A DNA stretch of 64,000 bases from Pseudobdellovibrionaceae bacterium (GTDB taxonomy: Bacteria; Bdellovibrionota; Bdellovibrionia; Bdellovibrionales; Bdellovibrionaceae): contig JAHBUS010000003.1 of the NCBI GenBank assembly GCA_019637955.1, positions 62,001 to 126,000 on the forward strand. The letters run 5' to 3'. Under the pieces are notes generated by a model. It had not been told where the DNA came from. It worked only from the letters and a program-made list of their open reading frames with translations, and made no database searches. Made by a program: the position numbers and the translations under genes. Shown one piece after another: positions 3,994 through 58,935 of the stretch; the stretch's first letter is position 1, and each line of letters begins with the position of its first letter.

Positions 3994-3994
3994 G

Positions 3995-4011
3995 CCCCTA
4001 TTCTATAGGGG
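3995..4011. promoter_or_regulatory. Perfect palindrome filling the gap between divergent start codons
   Basis: CCCCTAT-TCT-ATAGGGG has 7-base arms and a 3-base spacer. It occupies essentially the whole 18-base gap between the ATG at 3993 (minus) and the ATG at 4012 (plus). Each arm ends in AGGGG next to a start codon, so one palindrome supplies a purine-rich ribosome-binding stretch to both genes. The promoters must then lie inside the opposing coding regions. Confidence 0.6.
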
Positions 4012-4722: not shown

Positions 4723-4729
4723 GTCACGA

Positions 4730-5191: not shown

Positions 5192-5208
5192 GGATCTCCT
5201 CCTTGAAG

Positions 5209-7487: not shown

Positions 7488-7578
7488 CTTTTTCGCTTTC
7501 TTTTTGGTTTGCTTTTGTAAGTAAGATCGGCTGAGATCATGAGGTCCAGAATCAATTTTATAAGGAGAAAGAGCAATC

Positions 7579-8265: not shown

Positions 8266-8293
8266 TCCGTTCGCGTCTCGTGTGAGACAAGAC

Positions 8294-8330
8294 AAAATAA
8301 AAAAGGCCCGCTAAGGGCCTTTTTTATTTT
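8294..8330 (+). terminator. Rho-independent terminator, usable on both strands
   Basis: Perfect 16-base inverted repeat (AAAATAAAAAAGGCCC and its complement) around the loop GCTAA, with T-runs in the right arm. It follows the FKBP gene by 28 bases. Confidence 0.92.
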
Positions 8331-8402
8331 GATCGGTGTCGCACCTCGTAGAAATGATTGATTGATCTGGTCTCCGGCTCTAAAAGTAAGGGGGGAGTGA
8401 TT

Positions 8403-8996
8403 ATGTCTTTTCCGTCCCAAGATCCGTTCTCCTGGTTTGAGTCCGAGTACCAAAAGGCCGTGCAGGCCAAGGTGCCGGAGCCCAATGCCATGCAGCTCGC
8501 CACCGTTGACGGCGAGGGCACTCCCAGCATCCGCGTCGTTTACTTCAAAGGCTTCGTTCGCGGCGGGTTTTCGTTTTACACCAATTACAACTCGCAAAAA
8601 GCCCGCGAGCTGGCCCGTTCCGGCCGCGCCTCGGTGAACTTTTTCTGGCCCCAACTCGCACAGCAAGTCCGCGTGACCGGCATCGCCGAAAAGCTCACGC
8701 GCGAAGAGAGCGAAGCCTACTTCCGCACCCGCGCGCGTTTGAGCCAAATTGGCGCCTGGGCCTCGGAGCAGAGCCAAGAGATCGACGGTCCCCAGTGGCT
8801 CGAGAGGCGCGTCGAAGACTTCGAAAAGCGTTTTCAAGGACAAGAGGTGCCGTGCCCGCTCGATTGGGGCGGATACCATTTGCTGCCGCTGCAAATCGAG
8901 TTCTGGTTCGGACAAGAGGGCCGTCTTCACAACCGCTACGTTTTTGAACGCTTCGGCATCGAGTCGGCGTGGCGCATGTACATGAAGAGTCCCTGA
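8403..8996 (+). CDS. pdxH: Pyridoxamine/pyridoxine 5'-phosphate oxidase
   Basis: FMN-dependent last step of pyridoxal-phosphate synthesis and salvage. The ATG at 8403 is chosen because GGGGGAG precedes it by 5 bases; the product is 197 residues, close to the family norm. Recognisable blocks are NAMQLATVDGEGTPSIRVVY, FYTNYNSQKARELA (FMN-phosphate site), VNFFWPQLAQQVRVTG, the Q/E/W-rich middle ARLSQIGAWASEQSQEI, and the C-terminal RLHNRYVFER and WRMYMKSP, which replaces the more usual WRLxRLxP. The stop overlaps the pcp start (TGATG), so the two genes are coupled. Confidence 0.95.
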   Translation: MSFPSQDPFSWFESEYQKAVQAKVPEPNAMQLATVDGEGTPSIRVVYFKGFVRGGFSFYTNYNSQKARELARSGRASVNFFWPQLAQQVRVTGIAEKLTREESEAYFRTRARLSQIGAWASEQSQEIDGPQWLERRVEDFEKRFQGQEVPCPLDWGGYHLLPLQIEFWFGQEGRLHNRYVFERFGIESAWRMYMKSP

Positions 8997-9607
8997 TGAG
9001 TCTTTTGATCACGGGCTTTGAGCCTTTTAACGGTGAGACTTTGAATCCCAGTCAGCTGCTGGCGCAAAAATTGGCCCGCAGCCGCGGGCTCGATGTCGAG
9101 ATCTTACCCGTGTCTTACAAGCGCAGCTTTGAGGTGCTTCGGGACCGGCTCGAGTCGGGCCGTTACAAGGGGCTGCTGAGCATCGGCCAGGCCGCTGGGC
9201 GCAGCAAGGTGTGCCTCGAGCGGGTGGCGCTGAATCTCGAAGATGCCGATCTTGCCGATGCCGATTTGGTCACGAAAGTCGAAAGCGCGATCGATCTCAA
9301 TGGACCGACAGCGCACCTCAATCCGCTTCCACTCCGTCAGTACGTTCGCGAATTCAAGATGCGCGGGCGCCCGGTTGAAATTTCAACCAGTGCTGGAGCG
9401 TATGTTTGCAACTCCTTGTATTACCAGACTTTTCGCTGGATGGAAAAGAACCCGCGAGCGCTGGCGTTTCAGCTCTTTGTTCATGTTCCGTTCCTGCCCG
9501 AGCAGGCCGAGCGCAAGCCAGGGCTGGTGCCGTCTCTCGAAATGAGCGAGATGGAAGCCTCTTTGTCCGAACTGATCGACCTCTTAATTGAGCGTCTCCC
9601 GTCGTAA
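8996..9607 (+). CDS. pcp: Pyroglutamyl peptidase I (peptidase family C15)
   Basis: Cytoplasmic cysteine peptidase that removes N-terminal pyroglutamate from peptides. Starting at the ATG that overlaps the pdxH stop, it has 203 residues, in line with about 210 for the family. MSLLITGFEPFNGETLNPS is the family's N-terminal signature. The catalytic residues are in context: Glu in GQAAGRSKVCLERVALN, Cys in STSAGAYVCNSLYYQ, and His in LFVHVPFLPEQ. It could serve recycling of peptides, for instance from digested prey or nutrient protein; that link is inference. Confidence 0.93.
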   Translation: MSLLITGFEPFNGETLNPSQLLAQKLARSRGLDVEILPVSYKRSFEVLRDRLESGRYKGLLSIGQAAGRSKVCLERVALNLEDADLADADLVTKVESAIDLNGPTAHLNPLPLRQYVREFKMRGRPVEISTSAGAYVCNSLYYQTFRWMEKNPRALAFQLFVHVPFLPEQAERKPGLVPSLEMSEMEASLSELIDLLIERLPS

Positions 9608-9795
9608 AACCCACGCCGTCAATTGTGGAGCCACTGTTTATTTTGCGGCTTCCTGGTGCCCCTTTTCGGCGGCCCCCAGGGACTTCGTCAAAGAGGACCT
9701 TTTCCACGGTGTTTCCATCATTTCAAAAAGCCTCTGAACTCTGTGCATTTACCGCCGAGCCGGGCGAGGGCGCTGGGTTTGCTCTAGAGAGAGGC

Positions 9796-10356
9796 ATGAA
9801 AACACGAATCAAAAATCTGATCTTGGTGGCGCTCTTTCTTCCGCTTTCGATGCTGACGCTGGCCTGCGCGAAAACGGACAACTCTTCATCCACGGGAACG
9901 ACCGCGACATCGTACTACCTCAACAACGGAACCTGCTACTCCTCGAGCGGGACGGTGGTGGCCTCAAGCTACTGCACCTCGGCGGGCTACTACACGAACA
10001 ACGGCGTTTGCTACGCGAGCAATGGGACCGCGGTGAGTTCGACTTATTGCGGGCTGACCGGTTACACGATGACCAATGGCTATTGCTACAACAGCTCGGG
10101 CCAAATGGTGTCGACGACTCTGTGTTCTTCGACCGGGTACTACATGAACAATGGCTACTGCTACACCTCATCGGGTTCGATCGTGGCGACCGCGCTTTGC
10201 ACCGGGACGGCCACCGCCACGACGGGATATCAGTGCAACGGTTACTATTACTACGCCTCGGCTTACGGGACGCAGATGGTGATGTGTTCAGGCGCCTCGT
10301 GCCGCGGGTATCAGCTCTACGAAATCACGACGCAGCGATGGGTTCTTTGTCAGTAA
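9796..10356 (+). CDS. Lipoprotein built of tandem Cys/Tyr/Asn-rich repeats
   Basis: The start is the ATG at 9796, which gives a signal peptide ending in the lipobox LTLAC; the upstream in-frame extension lacks these features. After Cys24 the 186-residue protein is four clear copies of a 25-residue unit, GYYxNNGxCYxSSGxxVxxxxC (about residues 40-140), plus a degenerate fifth and a different Cys-rich end (MCSGASCRGYQLYEITTQRW). Each unit carries two Cys spaced about 13 apart, suggesting one disulfide per repeat in an elongated surface rod. I recognise no enzyme motif. It stands alone between pcp and the convergent apaG gene. Confidence 0.82.
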   Translation: MKTRIKNLILVALFLPLSMLTLACAKTDNSSSTGTTATSYYLNNGTCYSSSGTVVASSYCTSAGYYTNNGVCYASNGTAVSSTYCGLTGYTMTNGYCYNSSGQMVSTTLCSSTGYYMNNGYCYTSSGSIVATALCTGTATATTGYQCNGYYYYASAYGTQMVMCSGASCRGYQLYEITTQRWVLCQ

Positions 10357-10368
10357 TGAAAAGTAAAA

Positions 10369-10758
10369 TCAGTGAAGGGCGTGAGGGGCGATGAGATAGA
10401 ACTCGGGAATCTCGACTTCGAAACTCTCGCCCATGTCGGACACCATCTGGTAGGTGCCGCGCATTTGACCCGAAGCGGTCACGAGCGGGCAGGCACTTTC
10501 GTACTCAAAACTTTGGCCGGGTTGAATCTTGGGCTGAACGCCCACGACACCAGCCCCACGAACTTCTTCGACCTGTCCGATGCTATCGGTGATGATCCAA
10601 TGACGGGACATCAACTGGGCGGGCGCGGTGCTCTTGTTGGTGATGTTGACTTTGTACGCAAAGAAGTACTGATTCTGATCAGGACGGCTCTCAGATTCCA
10701 CGTAAGTGACGTGAACTTTGACTTCGAAATGAGGGTTCATTTGCTTCTGTACGGACAT
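10369..10758 (-). CDS. apaG: ApaG-family protein
   Basis: 129 residues with the all-beta ApaG/DUF525 pattern: FEVKVHVTYVESESRPDQNQ, YFFAYKVNITNKS, LMSRHWIITDSIGQVEEVRG, GVVGVQPKIQPGQSFEYES, and the closing MRGTYQMVSDMGESFEVEIP. The family has been linked to Co2+/Mg2+ homeostasis and binds no well-established partner; the biochemical role remains unsettled. It follows the phosphodiesterase-fold gene by 47 bases on the same strand and may share its transcript. Confidence 0.95.
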   Translation of the reverse strand: MSVQKQMNPHFEVKVHVTYVESESRPDQNQYFFAYKVNITNKSTAPAQLMSRHWIITDSIGQVEEVRGAGVVGVQPKIQPGQSFEYESACPLVTASGQMRGTYQMVSDMGESFEVEIPEFYLIAPHALH

Positions 10759-10805
10759 CGAGATCCGAATTTAAATTTTTGCCCCGAAGGGGTCAAGCGG
10801 CTCGA

Positions 10806-11840
10806 TCAAAAGATCGGGATTCCTGTCAATTCAAAGACCAAAGGGTAGTGGTCGCTTGGAAGCAGCATTTTGGCATCCAGCGTCGTTGGCGGGTCCATCG
10901 GGAGCCCCAAATGGTCCTTATAGCGGTAGACGTGGACCGAGTCCTTTTTGAGGTGTCTTTGCAGGAGTGGAGACAGAAAACAGTAGTCGATCTGACGTCC
11001 ATCGGGAGGGCGGTGCGAGCGGCCCACTTGGTAGTAAGTGGCGCGCTGATCCACGGGTAAACCTGCCACCTCACACACATCTTCAAGCTCGGTCTTCTGG
11101 TAAATCTGCAGGAACTCGGTTTCGGGCGATGCTTTCAGGGCAAGTCCGTTCATGTCGCCGGCGATCGCGATGGGGACTTTGCGATGAAATTTGGTTTCAA
11201 GTTCTTGGTAGATTTCGAGCAAGGCCGTGCACTCGGCCTGGCGGCGCTCAAAGCCGCCCGGATCTTTGAATTGCGGATCAAGGCGCGATTTCAAGTGCGT
11301 GAGAATCACGATCAGAAAGGGTTGATTGCGATCGCGCATGAAGAGGTGCAGCTCGGCGGCGTCGCGCGAAAACTTATGACTCTGGATCGGCTTTCCGCCG
11401 ATGGTCGTCATGCCGGCATCGAGCGAATCGCGCTCGTGCGGGTAGAGGTAGTTGATGCTGCGATTTTTATTGGTCGTGATGTCGAAGTAAACACCCAGGT
11501 CTTTGCGGATTAAAAAGCCCACGTCGATGTTGCGGTCCGAGTTGCCCTCGACGAGCGCGGCCGAATACTGATCGTTCAAAAAGAGCTGGTTAAAATTGCG
11601 AAGCGATTCGAGACCGCCGACCTCGCACAAAAGAATCAGGTCGGGCTTGGTTTCAAAGATGACGTTGGCGAGCGCCTTTGCTTTTTGCAAGGGCTTGTTG
11701 TTGTAGATCGAGGTCGAGAGTTTTTGCCACTGAATCTCGTCAAGCTTCAAATGCTCGGGCGTGAACTGCTGATCAGAGAGCAGAAACAGGTTCTCGACAT
11801 TTAAAAGTAGAACCTTGAGGTTCAAACTGAGAGGGGTCAC
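10806..11840 (-). CDS. Endonuclease/exonuclease/phosphatase-family protein
   Basis: 344 residues of the DNase I-like metal-dependent phosphodiesterase fold. Catalytic landmarks are N15/E17 in LLLNVENLF, E in LILLCEVGGL, H in VILTHLKSR, D and N in IAGDMNG, and the terminal SDHYPLVFEL with the catalytic His. No signal peptide is visible, so it probably acts in the cytoplasm; the substrate (nucleic acid, lipid phosphate or other) is open. The GTG start at 11840 sits in the loop of a palindrome (see 11831-11847), 5 bases after the stop of the upstream gene. Confidence 0.88.
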   Translation of the reverse strand: MTPLSLNLKVLLLNVENLFLLSDQQFTPEHLKLDEIQWQKLSTSIYNNKPLQKAKALANVIFETKPDLILLCEVGGLESLRNFNQLFLNDQYSAALVEGNSDRNIDVGFLIRKDLGVYFDITTNKNRSINYLYPHERDSLDAGMTTIGGKPIQSHKFSRDAAELHLFMRDRNQPFLIVILTHLKSRLDPQFKDPGGFERRQAECTALLEIYQELETKFHRKVPIAIAGDMNGLALKASPETEFLQIYQKTELEDVCEVAGLPVDQRATYYQVGRSHRPPDGRQIDYCFLSPLLQRHLKKDSVHVYRYKDHLGLPMDPPTTLDAKMLLPSDHYPLVFELTGIPIF

Positions 11841-11847
11841 ACCCCTC
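11831..11847 (-). promoter_or_regulatory. Hairpin holding the GTG start codon in its loop
   Basis: On the minus strand the sequence is GAGGGGT-GTG-ACCCCTC: 7-base perfect arms with the presumed GTG start as the 3-base loop and the Shine-Dalgarno-like AGGGG buried in the stem. In mRNA this would hide the ribosome-binding site unless the ribosome terminating just upstream melts it. Confidence 0.5.
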
Positions 11848-12979
11848 AGTGTAAGAAAACGCGTCCGCAGAGTCGAGAGCCGAAGAACAGTGTACGCAGC
11901 GAGTTGATCGCTTTTTCAACCGGGCTCACGAAAAATCGGAGGGTTGAAAGGCCCAGACCCGTTTCCATGCGCACAAAGCCCTTCATCATGGGCGAAAACG
12001 TGAAGCGCAAGAGAACTTTATTGTCGAGCGTGTTGGTGTACGTCAGCAGATCACCCAACGGCGACGGCGGCCAGGTGAGCCCGGTGCTCAGACCCGTCTG
12101 AAACTGACTCGGGGTCATCGCCGAATACCCGGGAATCATGGGCGGGTAGAAGCTGATGCCGTGCCTCGCCATTTCGCCGGGGCGCTGGTTCGACATGTAC
12201 ATCCCGGCTTTGCCTAAAATTCCGGCGACAAAAACGGCTTTCATCGTCGTGCTCTGAAACTTTTCGAAATCGCGGTAGATCTGAATGGCCAGAGCATGAG
12301 TGTCGCGGTTGTAACCGATCGAGATCCCGATATCGAAGAGACCGCCCCAGCCTTTTTTATCCATCCCGGCCAGCATCTCCAGTCCGCCCGAGGCCATCAC
12401 GCCGAATTCGTTCGAGTGCGCGAAGAGAAGGGCTTGGGACCAGAGTTTTTGATCGAGGCCGTGCAGAAAACCTTGAATGATGGTTTCCGAACGTTGCTTG
12501 AGGGTTGTCTGCAGGCGGCGCTCGTTTTCCTCGGCGCGCTTCTCCATCTCGAGGTCGCGCGCGCGCGCAACATCGGCCCGCACGAGCGGATCGAGCTCGT
12601 TCATCGCGATGCGGGCGCTCTCATCTTTAAGTGAACGGATGCCGAATTTGATTTTCTCTTTCACGACACTGCCGAGACCGAAACCATATTTGAGCATCTG
12701 CAGGGCTTTCGCGGCCTGGGTCAAAAAGGCGCCGCGGTTGCGCATGAACACCTTCTGTTCCTCTTGGCTGAGCTGTTCAAAGTTCACGCGCTCAGCCGAG
12801 CCTGGCTTGGGGTCTTCGAGGGTGTAAACCCGCGAGGCCATTTTGATCTCAAGGCGCTCGGCGGATTGAACCGTTTCGGCTTTGGGAGCATCGATCTCGA
12901 TCTCGGTTTGCGCGTAGGCCGGCAAAGCCATGAGCGAGGCCGCAAGAAGAGGAAGGGCGAATGTCAGGCGACGGACCAT
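11846..12979 (-). CDS. Conserved-looking exported protein of unknown function
   Basis: The start is the ATG at 12979 with GGAGA 4 bases upstream, giving 377 residues; MVRRLTFALPLLAASLMALPAYA is a signal peptide cut before QTEIE. Residues 25-120 are charged and helical (SQEEQKVFMRNRGAFLTQA), including a coiled-coil-like stretch RARDLEMEKRAEENERRLQ. The rest is rich in aromatic and Gly residues (GGLFDIGISIGYNRDTHAL, LRFTFSPMMKGFVRMETGLG), suggesting beta-strands, perhaps in the outer membrane. I do not recognise the family. The C-terminus ends in CGRVFLH, not in the aromatic residue typical of beta-barrels. Confidence 0.8.
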   Translation of the reverse strand: MVRRLTFALPLLAASLMALPAYAQTEIEIDAPKAETVQSAERLEIKMASRVYTLEDPKPGSAERVNFEQLSQEEQKVFMRNRGAFLTQAAKALQMLKYGFGLGSVVKEKIKFGIRSLKDESARIAMNELDPLVRADVARARDLEMEKRAEENERRLQTTLKQRSETIIQGFLHGLDQKLWSQALLFAHSNEFGVMASGGLEMLAGMDKKGWGGLFDIGISIGYNRDTHALAIQIYRDFEKFQSTTMKAVFVAGILGKAGMYMSNQRPGEMARHGISFYPPMIPGYSAMTPSQFQTGLSTGLTWPPSPLGDLLTYTNTLDNKVLLRFTFSPMMKGFVRMETGLGLSTLRFFVSPVEKAINSLRTLFFGSRLCGRVFLH

Positions 12980-45707: not shown

Positions 45708-47720
45708 TCATTGGCGTTTGATAGAGCTGACTTCTTTGCGTAACTGCTGAAGTGCCATTTTTAGCTTTTCGTTCTCTAACTTGAGTTCTTTGACGGATTC
45801 GATAAGCGGAGCAACGAGATTCCCATACATCAACGACTTCGTGCCGGATTCGCCGTCGATTTTCACAACCTCAGGAAATACCTTTTCAACTTCTTGAGCA
45901 ATAAGTCCAATTTGATGAGTGTTCCCGAATCTTTCATCTCGCCAGTCATAGGAGACTCCGCGTAACTTGCGTATGCGGTCAAGTGAGCTCTCGAGCGGTA
46001 GAATATTCTTCTTGAGGCGCGCGTCGGATACAGACGTGCACCCAGAGCCTGAGCAAATAACAGTTCCGGCAACGCGAATTTGCGTGCTTGAATTAATGTC
46101 GCCATCTACATCTAGGCGATATGCCGGATCATTTTTAGCGATGCCGACGAGTACAGACGCCGGAGTTCCAACTGCAGTGCTCAGCCCGGTTGCAAAGACG
46201 GCATTGCCGATATTCATTGTGTGGCTATCGCCAGCGTTTGGTACATCTGTAAACGCTCCTACTAGGATATTGTTGGTAGCAGATCCGGAAAGTTTGATCC
46301 CATAAGATCCACCTAGAACTGTGTTGTAGGATCCGGTTCCTATGCTGCGACCAGAATAATGTCCTACTGTAGTATTATACTCGCCTGTTGTGTTGGAAAA
46401 GAGAGATTCGTAGCCGACGGATGTGTTGTATGAACCAGTCGAGTTGACAGAGGCAAATTCACCTAATGCCGTCTGTACGCCCGTGATATTCGCATTTCCT
46501 GCGCCGTGACCTAGTGCAGTCAGGCGTCCCGTTGTGTTGTTGACACCTGCAATGTTTCCAACGGCCGTCACAATTCCGGAAGTTGTATAACGAGCAGCTT
46601 GATGTCCAACAGCTGTGACAAAGCCATCGGTCGTTGAGTTACCGGCATAAAATCCGAGAGCTGTGAAATATCCTCCCATTGAGTAGTTATAGCTCGTACC
46701 AGCATAGTTTCCGACGGCAACTGCAAATGAGCCTGTTGTAATAGATTTGAGAGCTTCAACGCCAATTGCGGTGTTGCTACTTCCGGTAGTCAAAGCATTT
46801 AATGCTTGGTATCCAACTGCTGTATTGTATGAAGCTGTAGTTTGGTTCTGCAACGTCAGTGCTCCAGCATTTGTATTTTGAGAGCCTGAGCCCGCACCCT
46901 TACCAAAAATTACGCCATTGATATTGGCGTTTCCGCCCAAGACATGGAGCTTTGTGACTGGGGAGTTTGTGCCAATTCCCACATTGCCGGTGTTGTAATA
47001 GATATTAGAGCCAGTCGTGGTCCACTGTGAGCTTCCGCCGCCGCCAGTGATCGTCACATTCGAAACAGCGGTTACGCGGCCTTTTGAATCGACCGTGATT
47101 TGAGGAACTTGAGTCGCTGATCCATAGGTGCCACTCGTGGCACCTGATGCCGCCAGAGTCGGGTTGGGATAAGTTCCAGTCAAATCACCGCCGGCTGAGC
47201 CGCCAGGGGCGACGCCCGAAATCGTGGTGTTGCCGGCAGCCGTCAGGCGACCTTGCGCATCGACGGTCAACGTAGGGACTTGAGTGGCAGAGCCATAAGT
47301 CCCTGCCGTAACTGCCGTGTCGGCCAGGGCAATCGTGCCAGAGCCTGTAATGGGTCCACCCGAAAGGCCTGTACCCGTAGCAATACTTGTCACAGTCCCT
47401 GATCCGCCGCCAGAGCTCCAGCCTGAGGATATTGTTTTACAGTTAGAGCCCGAGCGATCACAAATTTCTGTCGCTCGGATAGTCCCGTCAACGTCAAGCG
47501 CAGATCCAGGGGTGCTCGTACCAATACCAACTTTGCCATTCACCATCAAGGCAGGATCAACTGCGGTGTTGATAGTTACGGGCACACTGAAGTCATAAGA
47601 CGCGCACAGGTACATGTTGTTGCACACGGCGAATGACTTTTCAGAATAGCCAGTGAGGGCCGCGCCAAAGGCGAAGGCCGCAAATGTTCGGCGAGCGAAA
47701 GTCGCGCGAAGAGAATTCAT
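45708..47720 (-). CDS. Secreted trimeric fibre protein with S74 intramolecular chaperone
   Basis: 670 residues, N-terminal signal-like region ending SFAVCNN. Residues 60-260 are tail-fibre shaft repeats ([39 protein letters not shown]). Residues 290-530 carry about ten copies of a head-like repeat of the YadA type ([20 protein letters not shown]). The last 106 residues are a peptidase S74 domain: S565-D566 in [28 protein letters not shown], then a coiled coil [17 protein letters not shown]74 domains trimerise the fibre and cut themselves off at the Ser of SDxRxK. The architecture matches mosaic adhesive trimer proteins described in Bdellovibrio. Prey or surface adhesion is the likely role. 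Confidence 0.9.
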
Positions 47721-48017: not shown

Positions 48018-51000
48018 ATGCGCTCACTCGTGTTGGTTATTCTGATTTGCATCTCTTACGCTGCGGCGGTGCAGGCCGATTGTGCTTCAGAGAGACTGAA
48101 TTTGACGGCATGGGCTTCTGCATGCACGAGTCGTGATCCCCTTGTGTGTGACAATCCTCCGAACACAACGGCAAATTTTTCGATTGTTACTTACCCAATG
48201 CCGCTCACGGGTGTACCTACGGGAATCCAATACAATTGTGTCGCTGACTGTGGAAATTTTCCGGTTGTCGGCGGCATTTTCGGTTACAATTGCGCCTCTC
48301 AAATGAAGCCGGCGCTGGCATTTATTGACTATGAGAGGCCAACAAATTCATGTGGTTCCATCGTGCAAAATCACAATCGAGTTCTCGGAGAAGTAATTCC
48401 GGTAACTGGAACATCCTTCAGTTTGATGTACTTTTCCAGTCTGCAGGCTGAGAGGGTGGGGGCATACAAATTCTCAACTGAAGTTTCGGGCTCTTTCGTG
48501 GCTTCCACCGTAACTGGATACACATTTACGTTGAAGGATATGCTTGGAAACATCTTTGACTATCAGACCTTTCCCGCTTCTGCGAATCAGTCTTACTCAT
48601 TTACGTGGGACGGGCTTGATCATTTAGGTCAGCCAACGTTAGGGCCTAAGAAATTTGAGGGCATTCTTGCAGAACAAGCAACGGATGTTCCTAACTCGTT
48701 GCCTGCATTTGTTATTCTAGGTTCTCTAAAGGCGAAGATGCTCGGTCTCGGTGGATGGTTGCCTTCGAATTGGCATTTTTATTCCGAAGATGCCAAGCGC
48801 GTTTATTCGGCAACTGGGGAATTTCGCAACGTTGAAGCCATTGCCGACGGATCCTTTAAGCGAGTGGCGAGCTTGGATGGTGCCTTGGTTCACTATTTTG
48901 ATTCGCAAGGGCGCCTTCGCCTGTCTAAAACGGGAAGAACGGGAGCGACGATTACTGAGTTTACGTACGATTCGAACGGGTTTCTGGAGTCCTTAATCGA
49001 ACCTTTTTCACAGGTGACACTTTTTAATCGTGACAGCTCTGGGAAGCTTTTGTCCATTGAGGCCCCCAATGGAAAAGTATCAACAGCCAATATTGACTCG
49101 AACGGTCGGCTCACGCAGCTAACAAACCCCAAATCAGAAAGCTATACCATGACTTACGGTATCGACGGCTTGTTGGCGTCTTTTACTAAGCCTTCCGGAA
49201 TAGTCTCGTCGTTCGTTTTTGATTCTAACGGACTTCTGGTCTCGGACTCGCACTCTGGTGGGATGAGCCTCACTTTCGGCGGGACTTCGTCAAATTCTAC
49301 GCTAACAACGGCATCGGGTCTTGTTACGACTTTCCAAAAGAATCTAGTCGGTGGACTGATCCTTGAAGACAGGCCCGATGGATCTCGCAAAGAGGTCACG
49401 CAAACAGATACGACGTTCACAATAAGAGACCGTGGATTTGTAGGATCTATATACTACGGTAGCCATCCTCGTTTTGGATCCCAGGCGCGAACCGAGTACC
49501 TGATGACCTCCACGGGGCTAGAGAGCCGTAACGTCAATATATCCCATGCAGCAGTATTATCATCTTCGGACCCGTTCTCGATCACGACAGAAACTAAAGA
49601 ATGGCATCTCGGAAACTCTTTGGTCAAAACCACTCAAGTCTACACGGGATCCACAAAAACGACCGTCTTGACAAGCCCTTTGGGTAAACAGCGGACAATC
49701 GTCGTTGATAACTATGAGCGAGTTACGAGCGATCAAATCGGGTCTCAAGCACCGGTGACCTACACCTATTCATCGGAAAATCTGACCGAAATTGCGCACG
49801 GATCAAGATCTATGACGTTTGCTTACGACAATGTCACAAATCTTCTGACCTCAATAACGAATGCGCTGAACGAGGTGACTTCATTTGGGTATGACTCGGC
49901 GGAAAGACTGACAAGTCAAATTCTGGCAAATCTGAAAGTCATCTACTATGCCTATGATCATGACGGGAACCTCGCCTCAGTCACGCCCCCGGGACGGCCC
50001 GCGCACGCTTTGGTAACTGGCGCAAAAGGTGTTGTGACTTCTTACAATCCACCGCCCCTTGATTTGATCAGTAATTTCTCGACATCTTACACTTACAATA
50101 ACGATCGAAAACTCACGCAGATCACTCAGCCAGGATCGGTCAGTATCACGCTTTCCTATGGATCGACGACGGGTCTCTTGGACTCGGTTTCTATCCCTGG
50201 GTCTACGTATACGTATTCGTATTCACCTTCATCGAGCATCCTGCCTTCGGCAATTAGCGCAAATGGCATGATCATGAGCCTGACCTCAACTGCGGGTCAG
50301 CTTAAAAGTTATAGTCTCTACACACCGTTTACTTCCTTCGGAGCTTACGAGATTTACTCGAGTTTAAGCCAAGGCAAGGTTTCGAGTGAGCGCGTACGAG
50401 ACGGAGCTTCCACGGATTCAACCGTATACTTTGGATATGACAATGACGAACTGCTGACGTCTTCTGGTTCGATCACAATCACCCGAAATTCTGACGACGG
50501 CAGTGTTGAAACTTCTGTGCTCGACAATGTTGCTGATGAGTATGAACGAAATGCATTTGGCGAGATTGAGAGATACACGGTCGAGCACTCAACCAACGGA
50601 GCAATTCTTGAGCAAGAATTCGTTCGAGATGCCGTGGGGCGGGTAACCAAAAAGACGGAGAAATATCGAGGGGCTGATCCGGTCGTCTTTGATTACCTCT
50701 ATGACTCGATTGGGCGTCTGAGCGAAGTAAAGAAGAATACGATTACGACCGCAACCTACACTTATGACGACAATGGCAATCGAACTGGCGGATCGATTCG
50801 CGGCCAATCAACCACAGCAAGTGTCGATGATCAAGACAGGCTCAATGAGTACAATGTCTTCGAATATACCTATTCTTTGAATGGTGTATTGACTTCAAGG
50901 ACGAACGCGATGACTTCGACAACCGTGAATTTCACCTACAATGCTCTGGGCGCTTTGACGGAGGTCGAGCTGACACCGACCAAAACGGTTTCGTACGACT

Positions 51001-51854
51001 TGGATCCTTTGGGCCGACGATTCACAAAAAAGGTGAACGGGGTGGTTGAGCGTAAGTTCATGTACGATCTTCAAGGGCGCATTATTGCTGAGCTCAATTC
51101 CGGCAATGTGTTTCTGCGCCGCTATGTTTACGGAACAAGGTCAAATGTGCCTGATTACTACGTTCAGTCGGGGACAGAGTACCGAATGGTCTCAGATCAA
51201 ATTGGCAGCCTTCGTATGGTCGTGAATGCCTCAACCGGCGAAGTCATCCAATCCATTGAGTATGATGAATTCGGCCGGGTCCAAGTGGATACCAATCCCG
51301 GCCTTACGCCTTTTGGGTTCGCAGGCGGTCTTTATGACTGTGATACCGGGCTCGTGAGATTCGGCGCTCGGGACTATGACCCCTATATCGGACGCTGGAC
51401 CTCGAGAGATCCGATCCTCTTCAGTGGAGGCGATGCGAATCTGTATGGGTATGCGGTGAATGATCCGGTGAACTTCATTGATAGGACTGGTAACAGTCCT
51501 GAGGACGTTCGACGGATTCATGGAGTTTTTGGAAGAACTGTAAATGAACTTACGAATGCCGGAATGCGTATGCCAGGATCGGGTTCGTTGGCTGGAAATC
51601 TCAACAATTTGTCTTCGTTTGTCCATACATACAGCGGAGGTAGCTTAGGTAAACCTTTCTTTGGATGCAGGGATCAGGCTACCGTTGCTCAAGAAAACCT
51701 GAGTAACGCCACTGGCTTTGATGATAAATGGGAATTCTCTGTGCAGCGTGCTCCGACAATCATGTTACACTTCCATGTAATTGGGATCTCGTCTAATCCT
51801 CTAGACCCGGTCTTGGTATTAGATCCTTGGAAAAACACTATCGAAGGACGTTAA
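48018..51854 (+). CDS. Secreted Rhs/YD-repeat protein with a C-H-D (papain-like?) C-terminal domain
   Basis: 1278 residues. Signal peptide MRSLVLVILICISYAAAVQA. A shared N-terminal part (SCGSIVQNHNRVLGE, GLGGWLPSNWHFYS) precedes about 900 residues of YD/RHS repeats (FGYDSAERLTSQILANLKV and many more). The Rhs core ends with the conserved closing motif DPILFSGGDANLYGYAVNDP (about 1135-1155). The final 120 residues are unlike the paralogue. They carry C1217 in FFGCRDQATVAQ, H1251/H1253 in MLHFHVIG and D1269 in VLDPWKN, a Cys-His-Asp order seen in papain-fold toxins. Rhs shells enclose and deliver such C-terminal toxins. Here export would start at the Sec system, as no PAAR domain is present. 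A 71-residue membrane protein follows at once. Confidence 0.88.
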   Translation: MRSLVLVILICISYAAAVQADCASERLNLTAWASACTSRDPLVCDNPPNTTANFSIVTYPMPLTGVPTGIQYNCVADCGNFPVVGGIFGYNCASQMKPALAFIDYERPTNSCGSIVQNHNRVLGEVIPVTGTSFSLMYFSSLQAERVGAYKFSTEVSGSFVASTVTGYTFTLKDMLGNIFDYQTFPASANQSYSFTWDGLDHLGQPTLGPKKFEGILAEQATDVPNSLPAFVILGSLKAKMLGLGGWLPSNWHFYSEDAKRVYSATGEFRNVEAIADGSFKRVASLDGALVHYFDSQGRLRLSKTGRTGATITEFTYDSNGFLESLIEPFSQVTLFNRDSSGKLLSIEAPNGKVSTANIDSNGRLTQLTNPKSESYTMTYGIDGLLASFTKPSGIVSSFVFDSNGLLVSDSHSGGMSLTFGGTSSNSTLTTASGLVTTFQKNLVGGLILEDRPDGSRKEVTQTDTTFTIRDRGFVGSIYYGSHPRFGSQARTEYLMTSTGLESRNVNISHAAVLSSSDPFSITTETKEWHLGNSLVKTTQVYTGSTKTTVLTSPLGKQRTIVVDNYERVTSDQIGSQAPVTYTYSSENLTEIAHGSRSMTFAYDNVTNLLTSITNALNEVTSFGYDSAERLTSQILANLKVIYYAYDHDGNLASVTPPGRPAHALVTGAKGVVTSYNPPPLDLISNFSTSYTYNNDRKLTQITQPGSVSITLSYGSTTGLLDSVSIPGSTYTYSYSPSSSILPSAISANGMIMSLTSTAGQLKSYSLYTPFTSFGAYEIYSSLSQGKVSSERVRDGASTDSTVYFGYDNDELLTSSGSITITRNSDDGSVETSVLDNVADEYERNAFGEIERYTVEHSTNGAILEQEFVRDAVGRVTKKTEKYRGADPVVFDYLYDSIGRLSEVKKNTITTATYTYDDNGNRTGGSIRGQSTTASVDDQDRLNEYNVFEYTYSLNGVLTSRTNAMTSTTVNFTYNALGALTEVELTPTKTVSYDLDPLGRRFTKKVNGVVERKFMYDLQGRIIAELNSGNVFLRRYVYGTRSNVPDYYVQSGTEYRMVSDQIGSLRMVVNASTGEVIQSIEYDEFGRVQVDTNPGLTPFGFAGGLYDCDTGLVRFGARDYDPYIGRWTSRDPILFSGGDANLYGYAVNDPVNFIDRTGNSPEDVRRIHGVFGRTVNELTNAGMRMPGSGSLAGNLNNLSSFVHTYSGGSLGKPFFGCRDQATVAQENLSNATGFDDKWEFSVQRAPTIMLHFHVIGISSNPLDPVLVLDPWKNTIEGR

Positions 51855-52070
51855 GTGGCTAAAAATTCTGAAAATACCGTTGCGTGGGCCCTAACCATTT
51901 TGTCTCCGATTGTTTTGTTAGTTACGGGAGTTCTCCTGCCGAACGCGCTGGATATGAGAGGGGATCCATCGGAACAGGAATTTATGAAGAACATGGGTTT
52001 CGTAATATTTTGGTCCTGTATTGCCGGTCTTGGGCTGGGTTTCGGTCTGCTCTTTAAGAATCGAAAGTGA
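51855..52070 (+). CDS. Two-helix membrane protein, candidate immunity to the first Rhs toxin
   Basis: 71 residues from the GTG that touches the Rhs stop; AAGGA lies in the last Rhs codons, so expression is coupled. Two hydrophobic helices (AWALTILSPIVLLVTGVLLP; IFWSCIAGLGLGFGLLF) flank a short acidic loop (MRGDPSEQEF). Small membrane proteins in this position commonly protect against envelope-acting or cytoplasm-entering toxins. The assignment rests on position and size, not homology. Confidence 0.7.
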   Translation: MAKNSENTVAWALTILSPIVLLVTGVLLPNALDMRGDPSEQEFMKNMGFVIFWSCIAGLGLGFGLLFKNRK

Positions 52071-52280: not shown

Positions 52281-55200
52281 ATGAAAATGCTAGTTAACTT
52301 GTCTGTGTTTGCTCTAGTGGTTGCTTCCCAGAGCACCTTCGCGCAAACGATCTGCTCAAGCGGAGTTCGAACTAGTGTAAAAAACGTATTCGATTACTGC
52401 GCTAGTCTGAATGCCCTCGGTACACAGTGCTCTCCAGATGGTGGAGTCACCTTCGTCTCCAAAGTCTACATGATGCGGTCGATTCCCATGGTCGTAGGAT
52501 CAAACAAGTACATTCAGTATTCGTGTGATGAGTATATTTGCGGTTCAAATCAAATCCGCTGGTCTGTTGCCGATGCAGCAGGGTGCGCTGACGGGTTATT
52601 TGCAATTCAGCAAAACCAAGACTTCAAAGCGCCCTCGCTTACATGCGGATCTATTATTCAGAATGAAAACCGGAACCTTGGTGAGAGAATTCCTGTCGTT
52701 GGAACCAGCTTCGATCTTGTTTATTTTTCTCAATATCAGTTTGGTAGGACGTCTCATTATTCAGTAAACGTTCCGTTAACCGGTTCAACCTATGATTCAA
52801 ATATTCTAGGGTATTCAGTAACAGTTAAAGACAATCAGGGAAATACCGTAGATGCAGCTAGCTATTCGGTCGCACCGAATCTGTCTTATAATTACCAATG
52901 GGGTGGCAAGGACATCAGTAACATCCTCTTGCAAGGACCTCGTGAGTTCCAGGTCATCGTTTCGCAATCGGGCAGTGATTTCAGCCCATCGCTCACAAAT
53001 AAAGTCGTTGTAGGCACCGTGCTTGCTAAAAAGATTGGATTGGGCGGGTGGCTTCCGAGCAACTGGCACTTCTATTCCTATGATACTCAGACTCTTTTTT
53101 CGGCTGATGGTACCAACAGAAAGGTCATTGGGATTGCCGATTCGGGCTACACGCGGGTTGCTGAGCTCAATGGCCGAGAGGTTTACTATTTTTACTCAAA
53201 CGGGAACCTCGCATTCGTTAAGCTCGGCGTCACGGGCCAGACCGTTCTGACTTTCAATTACGATGGTAGTGGCCGGATCACCTCGATCCAGGAGCCGTTC
53301 TCACGCACCACAACGATTTCAAGGACCTCAGGGGTCGCGACATCCATTACATCACCCTACGGTAAAGTCACCCAGCTCACAATCGACGGAAACAATGACT
53401 TAGTTGGAGTTGAAGACCCAACTTCGGCTGAATATTCAATGACTTATCACTCGACCAGTGGATTGCTCACGACCTTCACCAAGCCGAATCTCGCCACAAA
53501 TTCTTTTACCTACGATTCCGAAGGAAACCTAACTTTAGACTCTCATTCGGGTGGATTAAGCTGGGCATTGTCGCAATCTGGAAACCAGGTAAATCTGACG
53601 AGTGCGGTGGGGAGAGTTTCTAGCTTTCAGAAAGATCTTGTGGCTGAAACGACCCGTGAAGACCGTCCGGACTCATCTAGCCGTGTTGTCCAAAGTTCCG
53701 ACTACCTGGAATCCGTCACGGACCGGCTTTTCTCCAGTAGCACAAACTATTCCAGCCATCCGCGCTTTGGCGCTCAGGCCCGAAAGATTTCCAGTTCTTC
53801 GGCATCAGGTCTAGCTGCCCGATCGACAACATTCAGTCATAGCGAGTCGCTTTCAAACGTAGCAGATCCATTCTCGGTGACGGCACTGCAAACCCAGTTT
53901 CACCATGGAAATAGTTCCGTAATCACGACGGTCTCTTATAGCGGTAGCACGAAGACTGAGACCGTGACCACTCCCTTGAACCGCACACAGGTCACCGAGT
54001 TCGATCAGTACCAGCGCCCGGTGGAAATCCAGTTGGGCAATCAGACGCCAGTGGTGATCTCGTACGACAATGAAAAGCTTGACGAGGTGACTCAAGGATC
54101 GCGTGTTTGGGCGTTTGCGTACGACAGCTTAAGCGGACTGCTGGAGTCTGTAACCGATCCCCTCAGCCAAACGACAATGTTCGGTTATGACAATGCCGAA
54201 AGACTCACTTACAAGATCTTTCCGGATCTGTCTGAAGTTCACTATGGTTACGATGGCGTTGGAAACCTTGTCTCTGTCCAGCCGCCAAATCGCCCAATGC
54301 ACTACTTTACGTTCAACTCAAAGGAACTGCTGGCGACTTATGATCCCCCGAGCCTTTCGGTTGGGCCAACCTACGGAACCTCGTTGACGTATAACTCTGA
54401 TGGGCAGCTCACAAAAATGCTCCGACCGGACGCAAAGGAAATCAACTACACGTATAACGGTACAACTGGACGGCTGACCTCGGTGAATGCCGACGGCGTC
54501 AATACGACATTCGGATACACATGGCAGTCGGCATCGCCACAGACGGTCACCAATGGATCGAAAAGCTTTTACTATGAGTATGCTGGCGGAGTTCCGAATT
54601 ACGTAGACTTTAGTTACACCGGTGCGACCATTCGGTATCTCCTAGAGTCTGTAAACGCTGCGGGAAAAGTCACTGCGGAAAAGATTCGTGATGCGAGCAG
54701 CACCTATGCGACAATTGGATTTAGCTATGACAACGATGAGCTCTTGACTGGTGCGGGAAGTTTAATTTTTACAAGAAACGTTCCAAATGGCCAGATTACG
54801 GCTGCGGTCCTGGACGACGTTGCCGATTCTTGGACTTATAACTCTTTCGGTGAGATCGAGACTTATATTTCCACTCATGCAATTGCGGGCGATCTTTATG
54901 AAGTTGAGTTTAACCGTGACTTAATGGGACGAGTGACTGAGAAGGTCGAGTCCTACAAGGGCGAGCAGCTGAAGAGCACTCAATATGTCTACGATTCCCT
55001 CGGCCGTCTCAGCGAGGTGAAGCGTGATAATGTGACGGAGTCGACTTACACTTACGATTCAAACGGAAATCGCACGGGCGGATCAGTCCGTGGACAAACA
55101 ACAACCGCGACTTATGACGATCAAGACCGTTTAAAAGCCTATAACGTTTTTGCACTGACCTATGGATTGAATGGTGAACTCGCAACAAAAACAAACACGC

Positions 55201-56126
55201 TGACTTCGACAGTTTCGAGCTATACCTATGATGTCAATGGCGCGCTCACTCAAGTGGTCGTTTCGCCGTCGAAGACCATCGATTACGAGCTGGATCCGGT
55301 TGGCCGTAGATTTACAAAAAAAATCAATGGAACTCTGGATCGTAAATTCATCTACGATTTTCAAAACCGTATTGTCGCGGAGCTGGGCTCCAGCAACTTA
55401 ATCACCAAGCGCTACGTTTACGGCTCCAAGGTAAATGTTCCAGATTACTACGTCGCTGGAGGTGTGAACTATCGAATGGTGACTGATCACCTTGGAAGTC
55501 TGCGTATGGTTGTGAATGCTTCCACTGGTGAAGTCATTCAGGTGATGGAATACGACGAGTTCGGCCGCGTCCGATTTGATACAAACCCTGGTCTGACTCC
55601 ATTCGGGTTTGCCGCAGGCTTGTATGACTGTGACACGGGGCTCGTGAGATATGGGACGCGTGATTACGATCCCTATTTCGGCCGCTGGATGAGCAAAGAT
55701 CCGATCCTGTTTAGTGGTGGGGACTCGAATCTGTATGGGTATGTGATGAGTGATCCGGTGAATTGGGTAGATGAATCAGGTCAGAACCGAGTTTCCTCTA
55801 AAAGGATTCATGACCCAGCTGGGTCTGGCGGAGGAGGCGGTGGAGTTGGCTCGGGAAGTGGAGCTGCTGGCGGACTTTCGATTAAAGCCACGCAAAGTTG
55901 TCCTAACATATCTTCGGTTATTTCACCGAAGATACAGAGTCAGATGGTTCAGCGAGGCTGGAATAATGAGATGATTAATAGAGCGATATCCACTCCTGGC
56001 ATCGCAGCGCAAGGAAAGTTCGGTCCAGCTACGCGGTATGTGGATCCAGGATCAGGTCAGTCTATAGTCATCGATAATGCTACAGGCCAGATTTTCCATG
56101 TAGGCGGACCTGGCTTTAAGTATTAG
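52281..56126 (+). CDS. Secreted Rhs/YD-repeat protein with colicin-E5-like RNase domain
   Basis: The ATG at 52281 with GGGGGA upstream gives 1281 residues; signal peptide MKMLVNLSVFALVVASQSTFA. It is a close paralogue of the preceding Rhs protein over the whole shell and the closing motif DPILFSGGDSNLYGY, but then diverges. A Gly/Ser linker (AGSGGGGGGVGSGSGAAGG) leads to about 65 residues that match the colicin E5-type ribonuclease pattern: QSQMVQRGWNNEMINRAIST, GPATRYVDPGSGQSIVIDN, ATGQIFHVGGPGFKY. Colicin E5 cuts the anticodon loop of tRNAs with a queuosine-type first position. An equivalent anti-tRNA toxin is the best reading. The next small gene is its likely immunity. Confidence 0.88.
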   Translation: MKMLVNLSVFALVVASQSTFAQTICSSGVRTSVKNVFDYCASLNALGTQCSPDGGVTFVSKVYMMRSIPMVVGSNKYIQYSCDEYICGSNQIRWSVADAAGCADGLFAIQQNQDFKAPSLTCGSIIQNENRNLGERIPVVGTSFDLVYFSQYQFGRTSHYSVNVPLTGSTYDSNILGYSVTVKDNQGNTVDAASYSVAPNLSYNYQWGGKDISNILLQGPREFQVIVSQSGSDFSPSLTNKVVVGTVLAKKIGLGGWLPSNWHFYSYDTQTLFSADGTNRKVIGIADSGYTRVAELNGREVYYFYSNGNLAFVKLGVTGQTVLTFNYDGSGRITSIQEPFSRTTTISRTSGVATSITSPYGKVTQLTIDGNNDLVGVEDPTSAEYSMTYHSTSGLLTTFTKPNLATNSFTYDSEGNLTLDSHSGGLSWALSQSGNQVNLTSAVGRVSSFQKDLVAETTREDRPDSSSRVVQSSDYLESVTDRLFSSSTNYSSHPRFGAQARKISSSSASGLAARSTTFSHSESLSNVADPFSVTALQTQFHHGNSSVITTVSYSGSTKTETVTTPLNRTQVTEFDQYQRPVEIQLGNQTPVVISYDNEKLDEVTQGSRVWAFAYDSLSGLLESVTDPLSQTTMFGYDNAERLTYKIFPDLSEVHYGYDGVGNLVSVQPPNRPMHYFTFNSKELLATYDPPSLSVGPTYGTSLTYNSDGQLTKMLRPDAKEINYTYNGTTGRLTSVNADGVNTTFGYTWQSASPQTVTNGSKSFYYEYAGGVPNYVDFSYTGATIRYLLESVNAAGKVTAEKIRDASSTYATIGFSYDNDELLTGAGSLIFTRNVPNGQITAAVLDDVADSWTYNSFGEIETYISTHAIAGDLYEVEFNRDLMGRVTEKVESYKGEQLKSTQYVYDSLGRLSEVKRDNVTESTYTYDSNGNRTGGSVRGQTTTATYDDQDRLKAYNVFALTYGLNGELATKTNTLTSTVSSYTYDVNGALTQVVVSPSKTIDYELDPVGRRFTKKINGTLDRKFIYDFQNRIVAELGSSNLITKRYVYGSKVNVPDYYVAGGVNYRMVTDHLGSLRMVVNASTGEVIQVMEYDEFGRVRFDTNPGLTPFGFAAGLYDCDTGLVRYGTRDYDPYFGRWMSKDPILFSGGDSNLYGYVMSDPVNWVDESGQNRVSSKRIHDPAGSGGGGGGVGSGSGAAGGLSIKATQSCPNISSVISPKIQSQMVQRGWNNEMINRAISTPGIAAQGKFGPATRYVDPGSGQSIVIDNATGQIFHVGGPGFKY

Positions 56127-56136
56127 ACTGAGACGT

Positions 56137-56370
56137 ATGACCGAAACGATATTTTTAAGATTGGAAGATGAAGATATTGATGTCTGGCGGCCTGTCTGTG
56201 CAGAAAAAGTTCTCGGGGGAGAGGGATACAGAATTTTGTCCTCGCCCCAGAACTTTATTCCCGATGGCGAAAAATGGGAATTTGACCTCGGTTCGGTTGT
56301 CTTAGTTGAAGAGAGAGAGCTCGAAGGTCGACTGGTAAAAGTCGCAATTTCCAAGATATCGATTAGTTAA
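56137..56370 (+). CDS. Small acidic protein, candidate immunity to the E5-like toxin
   Basis: 77 residues, starting 10 bases after the Rhs stop. It opens MTETIFLRLEDEDIDVWRPV and has EKWEFDLGSVVLVEE. This DVWRPV ... WEF pattern is one I recognise from a widespread family of small soluble proteins with no fixed function. It is strongly acidic, as expected of a protein that mimics tRNA and blocks a basic RNase, as ImmE5 does. The function rests on position and charge. Confidence 0.65.
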   Translation: MTETIFLRLEDEDIDVWRPVCAEKVLGGEGYRILSSPQNFIPDGEKWEFDLGSVVLVEERELEGRLVKVAISKISIS

Positions 56371-58058: not shown

Positions 58059-58388
58059 ATGCTTGTGGAGTTATTTGGAAGCCAAACAACCGTTAAGTGC
58101 CTTCTCTACCTGGAGGCCCTTCGCGAAGGGTATCCTTCCGAAATTTCGAAAGCCTTTGGGATTAGCAATACGCAAGTCAATAGAACATTGGAGAAGCTGG
58201 AGCAAGCCGACATTCTTGTGGCGCAGCCCAAGGGCCGCGCCAGGGTGTACTCTTTCAACAAGAGATGGCTCCTGTTTCCGGAGCTGGATGCTCTTCTGGC
58301 TAAGGTTGTTCGCAACATGCCGATCGAGGACCGAGAAAAGTATTTCGCGACTCGTAAGCGCCCACGCAAGAAGAATAAGACTCTTTAA
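58059..58388 (+). CDS. Winged-helix regulator paired with a nucleotidyltransferase
   Basis: 109 residues. The helix-turn-helix reads LREGYPSEISKAFGISNTQV, then NRTLEKLEQADILVAQPKG and the wing RARVYSFNKRW, an ArsR/MarR-like layout. The basic C-terminus (ATRKRPRKKNKTL) may contact DNA or the partner. It is followed after 4 bases by a nucleotidyltransferase-fold gene, and preceded by two palindromes suited to its own binding. Such pairs are found as toxin-antitoxin or abortive-infection modules (compare AbiEi/AbiEii and MNT pairs); which class this is cannot be told by eye. Confidence 0.85.
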   Translation: MLVELFGSQTTVKCLLYLEALREGYPSEISKAFGISNTQVNRTLEKLEQADILVAQPKGRARVYSFNKRWLLFPELDALLAKVVRNMPIEDREKYFATRKRPRKKNKTL

Positions 58389-58392
58389 TTAA

Positions 58393-58935
58393 ATGAAGAT
58401 CACAAGAAGGCTGAACCGCAAAGCTTTTGCCGCAGCGGTGGTCAAACAACTTAAGAAATACGAAATTTCGGCGGTTCTTGTCGGAGGGGCCTGCGTCTCG
58501 ATCTACACGAATGAGCGTCATGCCTCGCATGATCTGGATTTCATCTCGCCCCAAGCCCACGAAAAAATTGAGCAGGCTCTTGCCGAAATTGGATTCAAGA
58601 GAAAGAATAACTCCTACAAGCACATCGATTCGGATTTCTACGTTGAGTTTCCAAGTGGGCCAGTTGCGATTGGCAATGAAGTCCCGGTCAAGCCTGACGG
58701 CGGGTTCACGTACCGGGGAACTCAGGTTCAGATGCTGTCCCCCACGCAAAGCGTGATGGACCGTCTTTCGGCCTGGTATCATTGGAGTGATCACGGAAGC
58801 CTGATCAACGCCATTTTGATTTGTGAGAGCCAGCCTGTGAATCTCGACAAGGTCCGGCGTTGGTCGAAGCTTGAGGGTGAAGAAAAGAAATACGAACAGT
58901 TTCTCATCGATCTCAAGACCAACAAGAAAAAATAA
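58393..58935 (+). CDS. Nucleotidyltransferase-fold protein, possible toxin or antitoxin partner
   Basis: 180 residues. ISAVLVGGACVSIYTNERHA carries the GG of the nucleotidyltransferase fold (G31-G32) and DLDFI gives the D-x-D pair (D47, D49). The third acidic residue may be in DSDFYVEF. The C-terminal half has PTQSVMDRLSAWYHWSDHGS, LINAILICESQPVNLDKVRR, as in minimal nucleotidyltransferases of the DUF6036-like type. Enzymes of this fold can AMPylate or transfer nucleotides to tRNA or protein. It is translated from the same message as the winged-helix gene. Confidence 0.83.
   Translation: MKITRRLNRKAFAAAVVKQLKKYEISAVLVGGACVSIYTNERHASHDLDFISPQAHEKIEQALAEIGFKRKNNSYKHIDSDFYVEFPSGPVAIGNEVPVKPDGGFTYRGTQVQMLSPTQSVMDRLSAWYHWSDHGSLINAILICESQPVNLDKVRRWSKLEGEEKKYEQFLIDLKTNKKK

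What the first reader, a model, noticed from the sequence alone, without database searches (positions are those of the whole stretch)
51490..52070. First Rhs protein ends in a Cys-His-Asp domain with a two-helix membrane partner
Seen: the last 120 residues differ from the paralogue and carry C1217, H1251/H1253 and D1269 in motif contexts (FGCRDQA, LHFHVIG, VLDPW) like papain-fold toxin tips; a 71-residue two-helix protein starts at the very next base. Known: Rhs C-termini are exchangeable toxins and the next gene is usually immunity. Inferred: a cysteine-protease or related (deamidase, transglutaminase) toxin whose target may be at the membrane.
Basis: partly seen in the sequence, partly recalled or inferred. 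Interest (0 to 1): 0.72.

Follow-up and report, generated by a model that had tools for sequence, protein, structure and literature searches.

The report
Rhs toxin tip with membrane immunity
A predatory-type bacterium carries a large secreted Rhs toxin protein whose last 120 residues belong to a small, so far uncatalogued family built like a papain-type thiol enzyme, and the very next gene encodes a two-helix membrane protein that is probably its antidote.

Summary
Rhs-1 (window 48018-51854) ends in a 120-residue tip with no Pfam or NCBIfam match; a 71-residue two-helix membrane ORF starts (GTG) on the base after its stop. Searching a whole phylum (369 genomes) found eight relatives of the tip in seven other genomes. 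In all nine, C1217, Q1220, H1251, D1269 and W1271 are invariant and the H-to-D spacing is 18 (17 in the outlier). AlphaFold2 gives a confident model (pLDDT 90.6): Cys at the N-terminus of the core helix, His at the start of strand 2, Asp at the end of strand 3. That is the unpermuted papain/transglutaminase layout. Fold and profile searches, however, reach no significance against any known family. All nine tips are followed by a small ORF of 2-5 membrane helices, but other Rhs tips in this phylum often are too, so the membrane partner is only mildly specific. Best reading: a new thiol-enzyme toxin family of Bdellovibrionota that acts at or outside the inner membrane, neutralised by a membrane immunity protein. 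Substrate unknown; protease or lipid/acyl hydrolase preferred. New family, known kind; interest moderate.

The parts
48018..51854 (+). Rhs-1, 1278 aa: signal-peptide-like N-terminus (MRSLVLVILICISYAAAVQA), YD/RHS repeat shell, Rhs-associated core ending about residue 1158, then the variable tip
   Evidence: TEN_YD-shell E=1.3e-24 and RHS_repeat E=5.6e-24; TIGR03696 E=2.2e-20 at 1082-1158
51480..51851 (+). C-terminal tip (residues 1155-1278), candidate papain/transglutaminase-like thiol-enzyme toxin; candidate triad C1217, H1251, D1269, with invariant Q1220 and W1271
   Evidence: 9-sequence alignment; AlphaFold2 pLDDT 90.6, pTM 0.83; no Pfam/NCBIfam family
51666..51677 (+). codons C1217 to Q1220 (C-R-D-Q): nucleophile at the N-terminus of the core helix, and an invariant Gln three residues on
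   Evidence: coordinates follow from the ORF; invariance; helix 63-76 of the tip
51855..52070 (+). 71-aa two-helix membrane protein, GTG start, candidate immunity protein; predicted N-in/C-in with a 19-residue acidic loop outside
   Evidence: small multi-helix membrane ORF in the same position in 9 of 9 family loci
52281..56126 (+). Rhs-2, paralogue (about 47% identical core) with a different tip, a Colicin E5-type ribonuclease domain
   Evidence: (PF12106 E=7.4e-06, over cut-off)
56137..56370 (+). 77-aa ORF directly after Rhs-2, candidate soluble immunity protein to the E5-type tip (in-window contrast: no family match, not a membrane protein by inspection)

Best explanation
Residues ~1159-1278 of Rhs-1 are an exchangeable toxin: a compact thiol enzyme with papain/transglutaminase-like topology in which C1217 is the nucleophile, H1251 the base and D1269 the orienting acid, with Q1220 and W1271 as conserved active-site or structural residues. 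Inferred working order: Rhs-1 is exported through Sec (signal peptide; no T6SS sheath gene found in this genome), the Rhs shell carries the tip, self-cleavage at the degenerate DPxGL-like motif (..FIDRTGN|SPED..) frees it, and the enzyme attacks a substrate at or outside the inner membrane of a rival or prey cell. The 71-aa two-helix protein sits in the producer's inner membrane and gives immunity by binding the toxin or shielding its target. Shown here: domain, homologues, invariant residues, predicted fold, gene adjacency, partner topology. Inferred: enzymatic activity, toxicity, compartment, immunity. Substrate: I favour peptide-bond cleavage in a membrane or periplasmic protein (about 40%) over lipid/acyl hydrolysis (25%), transglutamination or deamidation (20%) and peptidoglycan amide cleavage (15%).
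For: Eight homologous domains in seven other genomes of the phylum; C, Q, H, D and W invariant at 22-59% pairwise identity, H-D spacing 18 in eight of nine and 17 in the ninth. At least eight of the nine sit directly after an Rhs core end, i.e. as exchangeable tips. AlphaFold2 models of two members agree: Cys is the first residue of the core helix, His begins strand 2, Asp ends strand 3, the element order that PMC10318531 gives for the papain-like core. The C-H-D spacing of 34 and 18 is close to vasohibin-1 C169-H204-S221, i.e. 35 and 17 (PMC4866520). The insignificant Foldseek tails contain several such enzymes: Polyporus lectin with its protease domain, VASH1/2, CPR-C4, Ceg10 (the class of the first, third and fourth partly from my own knowledge). 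A small ORF with 2-5 membrane helices follows every member, within about 25 bases of the stop in eight cases and at +70 in L008. The tip itself has no membrane segment. GC of tip and partner (45.3, 45.8%) differs from the core (48.7%) and the window (54.8%). No VipB/TssC homologue in the 99.94%-complete genome.
Against: No significant structural match (best PDB Foldseek E=0.44 and 0.08, both to DNA gyrase chains) and no significant profile match to Transglut_core, NlpC/P60 or vasohibin-like sequences from the same phylum; a decoy scored as high. No coordinates were available, so the C-H-D distances were not measured. The membrane partner is not specific: 8 of 18 other Rhs tips, and 8 of 8 other cassettes in the G048 array, have one (Fisher p 0.005 against the first set, 0.03 pooled, ignoring relatedness). 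The 71-aa partner has no convincing homologue. Nothing experimental.
Confidence: 0.6

Rival explanations
1. The tip is a lipid- or acyl-processing thiol enzyme (phospholipase/acyltransferase) working on membrane lipids from the periplasmic side, analogous to Tox-Act1 with its two-helix immunity protein Imm-Act1.
For: Tox-Act1 is a papain-like toxin with phospholipase activity whose immunity protein has two transmembrane helices (PMC12994826); here a soluble papain-like tip is always paired with a small membrane protein.
Against: Lipid-targeting members are circularly permuted (His before Cys: H43, C151 in Tox-Act1); here Cys precedes His in all nine. Membrane partners are common with other tips in the phylum.
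Confidence: 0.2
2. The tip is a transglutaminase or deamidase that modifies glutamines of an envelope protein instead of cleaving peptide bonds.
For: Cys-His-Asp order and spacing fit the transglutaminase-like core; the only hhalign overlap with phylum Transglut_core sequences puts His on His and Asp on Asp; vasohibin-type hits recur.
Against: That alignment is not significant (probability 0.7%, a decoy 1.2%); no Pfam transglutaminase or Gln_amidase match.
Confidence: 0.17
3. The tip is a peptidoglycan amidase or endopeptidase acting on the cell wall.
For: Unpermuted papain-like toxins can be cell-wall amidases; other Rhs tips in the phylum look like L,D-transpeptidase (Tlde1-like) domains (L026, L034, by inspection).
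Against: Those cell-wall-like tips are followed by exported-looking soluble or lipoprotein partners, not by two-helix membrane proteins; no NlpC/P60 match by profile.
Confidence: 0.13
4. The C-H-D residues are structural or metal-binding and the domain is not a thiol enzyme; the toxin works by binding or by another chemistry.
For: No fold or profile search reaches significance with a thiol enzyme; other invariant residues (Q1220, W1271, D1263, S1258, F1240) are not part of a classical triad.
Against: Papain-like element order in two confident models and near-invariant H-D spacing.
Confidence: 0.15

Closest known systems
Tox-Act1 / Imm-Act1 (Salmonella T6SS effector; PMC12994826)
   Same: papain-like enzyme toxin acting from the periplasm, next to a two-transmembrane-helix immunity protein
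   Different: Tox-Act1 is circularly permuted NlpC/P60 (His before Cys) and T6SS-delivered; here Cys precedes His, no sequence relation was found, and the carrier is a signal-peptide Rhs in a genome with no detected T6SS sheath gene
Cpe1 / Cpi1 (papain-like interbacterial protease toxin; PMC12136450)
   Same: antibacterial papain-like toxin with a Cys-His-Asp triad and an adjacent immunity gene
   Different: Cpe1 resembles ComA/LahT peptidase domains, cleaves cytoplasmic GyrB/ParE and has an immunity protein that was co-purified and crystallised with it; here the partner is a membrane protein and no sequence relation was found
Tox-PL1, Tox-PL-2, Tox-PLDMTX, Tox-TGase clades of polymorphic toxins (PMC3482391)
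   Same: papain-like C-H-D toxin domains at the C-terminus of polymorphic toxins, including RHS proteins
   Different: no Pfam hit for any of the nine members, and the conserved signature here (GC..Q ... DD.W.F ... H ... SSNP.DP...DPW) is not the NC-H-DxQ of Tox-PL1
Vasohibin / transglutaminase-like cysteine proteases (PMC4866520)
   Same: C-H-third-residue spacing 35 and 17 in VASH1 against 34 and 18 here; recurrent weak fold hits
   Different: third residue Ser/Thr in vasohibins, Asp here; homology not significant in any test
Imm17 and Imm-CdiI two-TM immunity proteins (PMC3482391)
   Same: short two-helix membrane immunity proteins next to polymorphic toxins
   Different: the 71-aa protein lacks Imm17's WxW signature, has no Pfam match and no convincing homologue in 369 genomes

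Membership tests
Rhs polymorphic toxin | YD/RHS repeat shell and Rhs-associated core followed by a variable C-terminal domain | tested here: met
   identity to the paralogue falls from 85% to 15% across the boundary
Rhs polymorphic toxin | immunity gene directly downstream | tested here: inconclusive
   an ORF is directly downstream in nine of nine loci; immunity itself not tested
Rhs polymorphic toxin | paired DPxGL-type self-cleavage motifs at the end of the core | tested here: inconclusive
   present but degenerate (RDPILF ... FIDRTGN) in the window protein; relatives have IDPSGLS, IDSSGLS and similar; motif as in PMC8636562
Papain-like (clan CA) cysteine enzymes | Cys at the N-terminus of the core helix, followed by antiparallel strands with His on strand 2 and a polar residue on strand 3 | tested here: met
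   two AlphaFold2 models, definition in PMC10318531; judged from secondary structure only
Papain-like (clan CA) cysteine enzymes | significant fold or profile similarity to a known member | tested here: not met
   Foldseek PDB E of 0.08 or worse and best hits unrelated; PDB sequence search; Pfam/NCBIfam; hhalign
Papain-like (clan CA) cysteine enzymes | triad atoms within hydrogen-bonding distance | not testable with these tools
   model coordinates are not returned
Permuted NlpC/P60 lipid-targeting toxins (Tox-Act1, TseH) | circular permutation, catalytic His before Cys | tested here: not met
   Cys precedes His by 32-39 residues in all nine
Canonical NlpC/P60 | PF00877 or profile similarity | tested here: not met
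Transglutaminase core / vasohibin-like | PF01841 or PF14822 match or significant profile similarity | tested here: not met
   hhalign probability 0.7% and 0.3%, decoy 1.2%
Tox-PL / Gln_amidase papain-fold toxins | Pfam match (e.g. PF15644) | tested here: not met
   no match for any of the nine
Toxin (any) | inhibits growth, abolished by C1217 substitution and by the partner | not testable with these tools
   needs an expression assay

The most novel reading that the evidence does not exclude
A previously undescribed toxin family, so far seen only in Bdellovibrionota, of minimal (about 120 residue) unpermuted thiol enzymes that attack a membrane-embedded or periplasmic target and are neutralised inside the membrane by helix-pair proteins that change freely while the enzyme stays conserved, delivered by Sec-exported Rhs shells without a T6SS by predator-type bacteria.
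Probability: 0.3. Interest if true: 0.62.

Novelty: new variant of a known kind. Interest (0 to 1): 0.45.

Why it matters
It adds an uncatalogued enzyme family, with named candidate catalytic residues, to the polymorphic-toxin repertoire, in a phylum known for predators. It also gives a testable case of a soluble thiol enzyme whose cognate partner is an integral membrane protein. If confirmed it would point to an envelope target for a papain-like toxin, and to Rhs delivery without a T6SS in these bacteria.

Tried and rejected
H1253 as catalytic: rejected, not conserved. Weak matches dismissed as chance: Phage_VG64 E=0.25, BLR5658 protein E=0.64, search hit L009 (E=0.0098, lost with the profile). 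A pore-forming tip: rejected, no membrane-length hydrophobic segment (highest 19-residue mean 1.1). Plasmid, viral-contig and pattern-based genome-contig scans gave nothing beyond the same three Bdellovibrionota contigs; the patterns were narrow, so this does not prove restriction to the phylum. A Gln_amidase (PF15644) search found nothing even in the control genomes, so it says nothing. The one LapG-type sequence (L100) was read out of frame, so that comparison is void; three loci of the other sets gave empty sequences there. The idea that a membrane partner is peculiar to this tip: weakened by matched controls.

Full report
The observation. Rhs-1 occupies window 48018-51854 (+), 1278 residues, and its stop codon is followed without a gap by a 71-codon GTG ORF at 51855-52070. 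Rhs-2 follows at 52281-56126; the two cores are about 47% identical, 85% over residues 1081-1140, and similarity ends at the end of the Rhs-associated core. Rhs-2 carries a different tip, a Colicin E5 ribonuclease domain (PF12106, E=7.4e-06). This is the normal anatomy of an exchangeable Rhs tip.

No catalogued family. The tip has no Pfam or NCBIfam match at any useful E-value, nor do its relatives, and no PDB sequence relative. A six-frame search of 369 genomes of the phylum found eight relatives in seven other genomes besides G000. Three of them, found again in named records, come from MAGs labelled Bdellovibrionaceae, Bdellovibrionales and Bacteriovoracaceae, which places the window in Bdellovibrionota. 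All sit at the end of an Rhs core or of a degenerate Rhs-like end (L008).

Conserved residues. In the nine-sequence alignment the invariant columns include C1217, Q1220, F1240, H1251, S1258, D1263, D1269 and W1271. The Cys-to-His distance is 32-39 and the His-to-Asp distance 18 in eight members, 17 in the most divergent; H1253 is replaced in every other member.

Fold. AlphaFold2 with these nine sequences gives pLDDT 90.6 and pTM 0.83 for the window tip and 88.9 and 0.83 for a second member. Both show two N-terminal helices, a core helix whose first residue is the Cys, then four strands, with His at the start of the second and Asp at the end of the third. PMC10318531 defines the papain-like core by this order. 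No coordinates were returned, so distances could not be measured. Foldseek found no significant relative. Among the insignificant hits, thiol enzymes of papain/transglutaminase topology recur (Polyporus lectin protease domain, vasohibins, CPR-C4), but DNA gyrase chains score better. Profile comparison with transglutaminase-core, NlpC/P60 and vasohibin-like sequences of the same phylum was not significant; its best stretch against the transglutaminase core does put His on His and Asp on Asp, but a decoy scored equally. The layout is therefore supported; descent from a known family is not.

The partner. All nine tips are followed by a small ORF with two to five predicted membrane helices. Some partners are related to each other (L002/L003/L006; L004/L007), others not detectably, while the tips remain clearly homologous. 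The window partner is predicted N-in/C-in with an acidic 19-residue outer loop. It has no convincing homologue in 369 genomes.

Control for the partner. In 18 other Rhs loci of the phylum the following ORF has at least two membrane helices in eight cases. In a tandem array of orphan Rhs tips in G048 (L064) all eight other cassettes have membrane partners. The association with this tip is stronger than background (Fisher p 0.005, 0.013 or 0.03, depending on the set), but the tests ignore relatedness and the effect is modest. Tips that by eye look like cell-wall L,D-transpeptidases (L026, L034) have exported soluble partners, which suggests that partner topology follows the compartment in which the toxin works (inference).

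Mechanism. Rhs-1 starts with a signal-peptide-like sequence, and no T6SS sheath gene was found in this nearly complete genome, so Sec export is the likely first step. Tip release by core self-cleavage is inferred from the Rhs literature (PMC8636562); the motif in the window is degenerate. The tip has no membrane segment. The favoured reading is a thiol enzyme acting at or outside the inner membrane, with the membrane protein as immunity. Tox-Act1/Imm-Act1 is a precedent for a papain-like toxin with a two-helix immunity protein (PMC12994826), but it is permuted and lipid-directed. Cpe1/Cpi1 is a precedent for a papain-like protease toxin with an adjacent immunity gene, but with a cytoplasmic target and an inhibitor that co-purifies with it (PMC12136450).

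Verdict. Real, conserved and more than chance; a new toxin-domain family of a known kind. The substrate and the immunity function remain to be shown.

Noticed in passing
L064 (G048:C6:566000-582000), about 2819-12907: Tandem array of ten short ORFs, each a stub of the Rhs core end plus a different tip, each followed by a membrane-protein ORF with 2-6 helices; two of the ten tips belong to the family studied here.
   Followed up: partly
L066 (G139:C1:1347500-1354500), 774-2026: Two transposase-like ORFs interrupt an Rhs gene upstream of a family tip; the downstream 721-aa frame with tip and membrane partner is still open.
   Followed up: no
window 55760-56370: Rhs-2 tip is a Colicin E5-type ribonuclease (PF12106); the next ORF (56137-56370, 77 aa) is a candidate immunity protein without a Pfam match.
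   Followed up: partly
L026, L034 (Rhs loci of G050 and G245): Rhs tips resembling L,D-transpeptidase (Tlde1-like) domains by eye, followed by signal-peptide or lipoprotein ORFs.
   Followed up: no
window 58059-58935: Adjacent ORFs with a weak HTH match and a borderline DUF2204 nucleotidyltransferase match, possibly a two-gene regulatory or toxin-antitoxin-like pair.
   Followed up: no
window 45708-47720 (-): 670-aa exported-looking repeat protein ending in a Peptidase_S74 (endosialidase chaperone) domain, transcribed away from Rhs-1.
   Followed up: no
L067 (G289:C87): Sub-threshold vasohibin-profile match (E=1.2e-4) in a genome of the same phylum, about 2 kb from a Transglut_core match.
   Followed up: no
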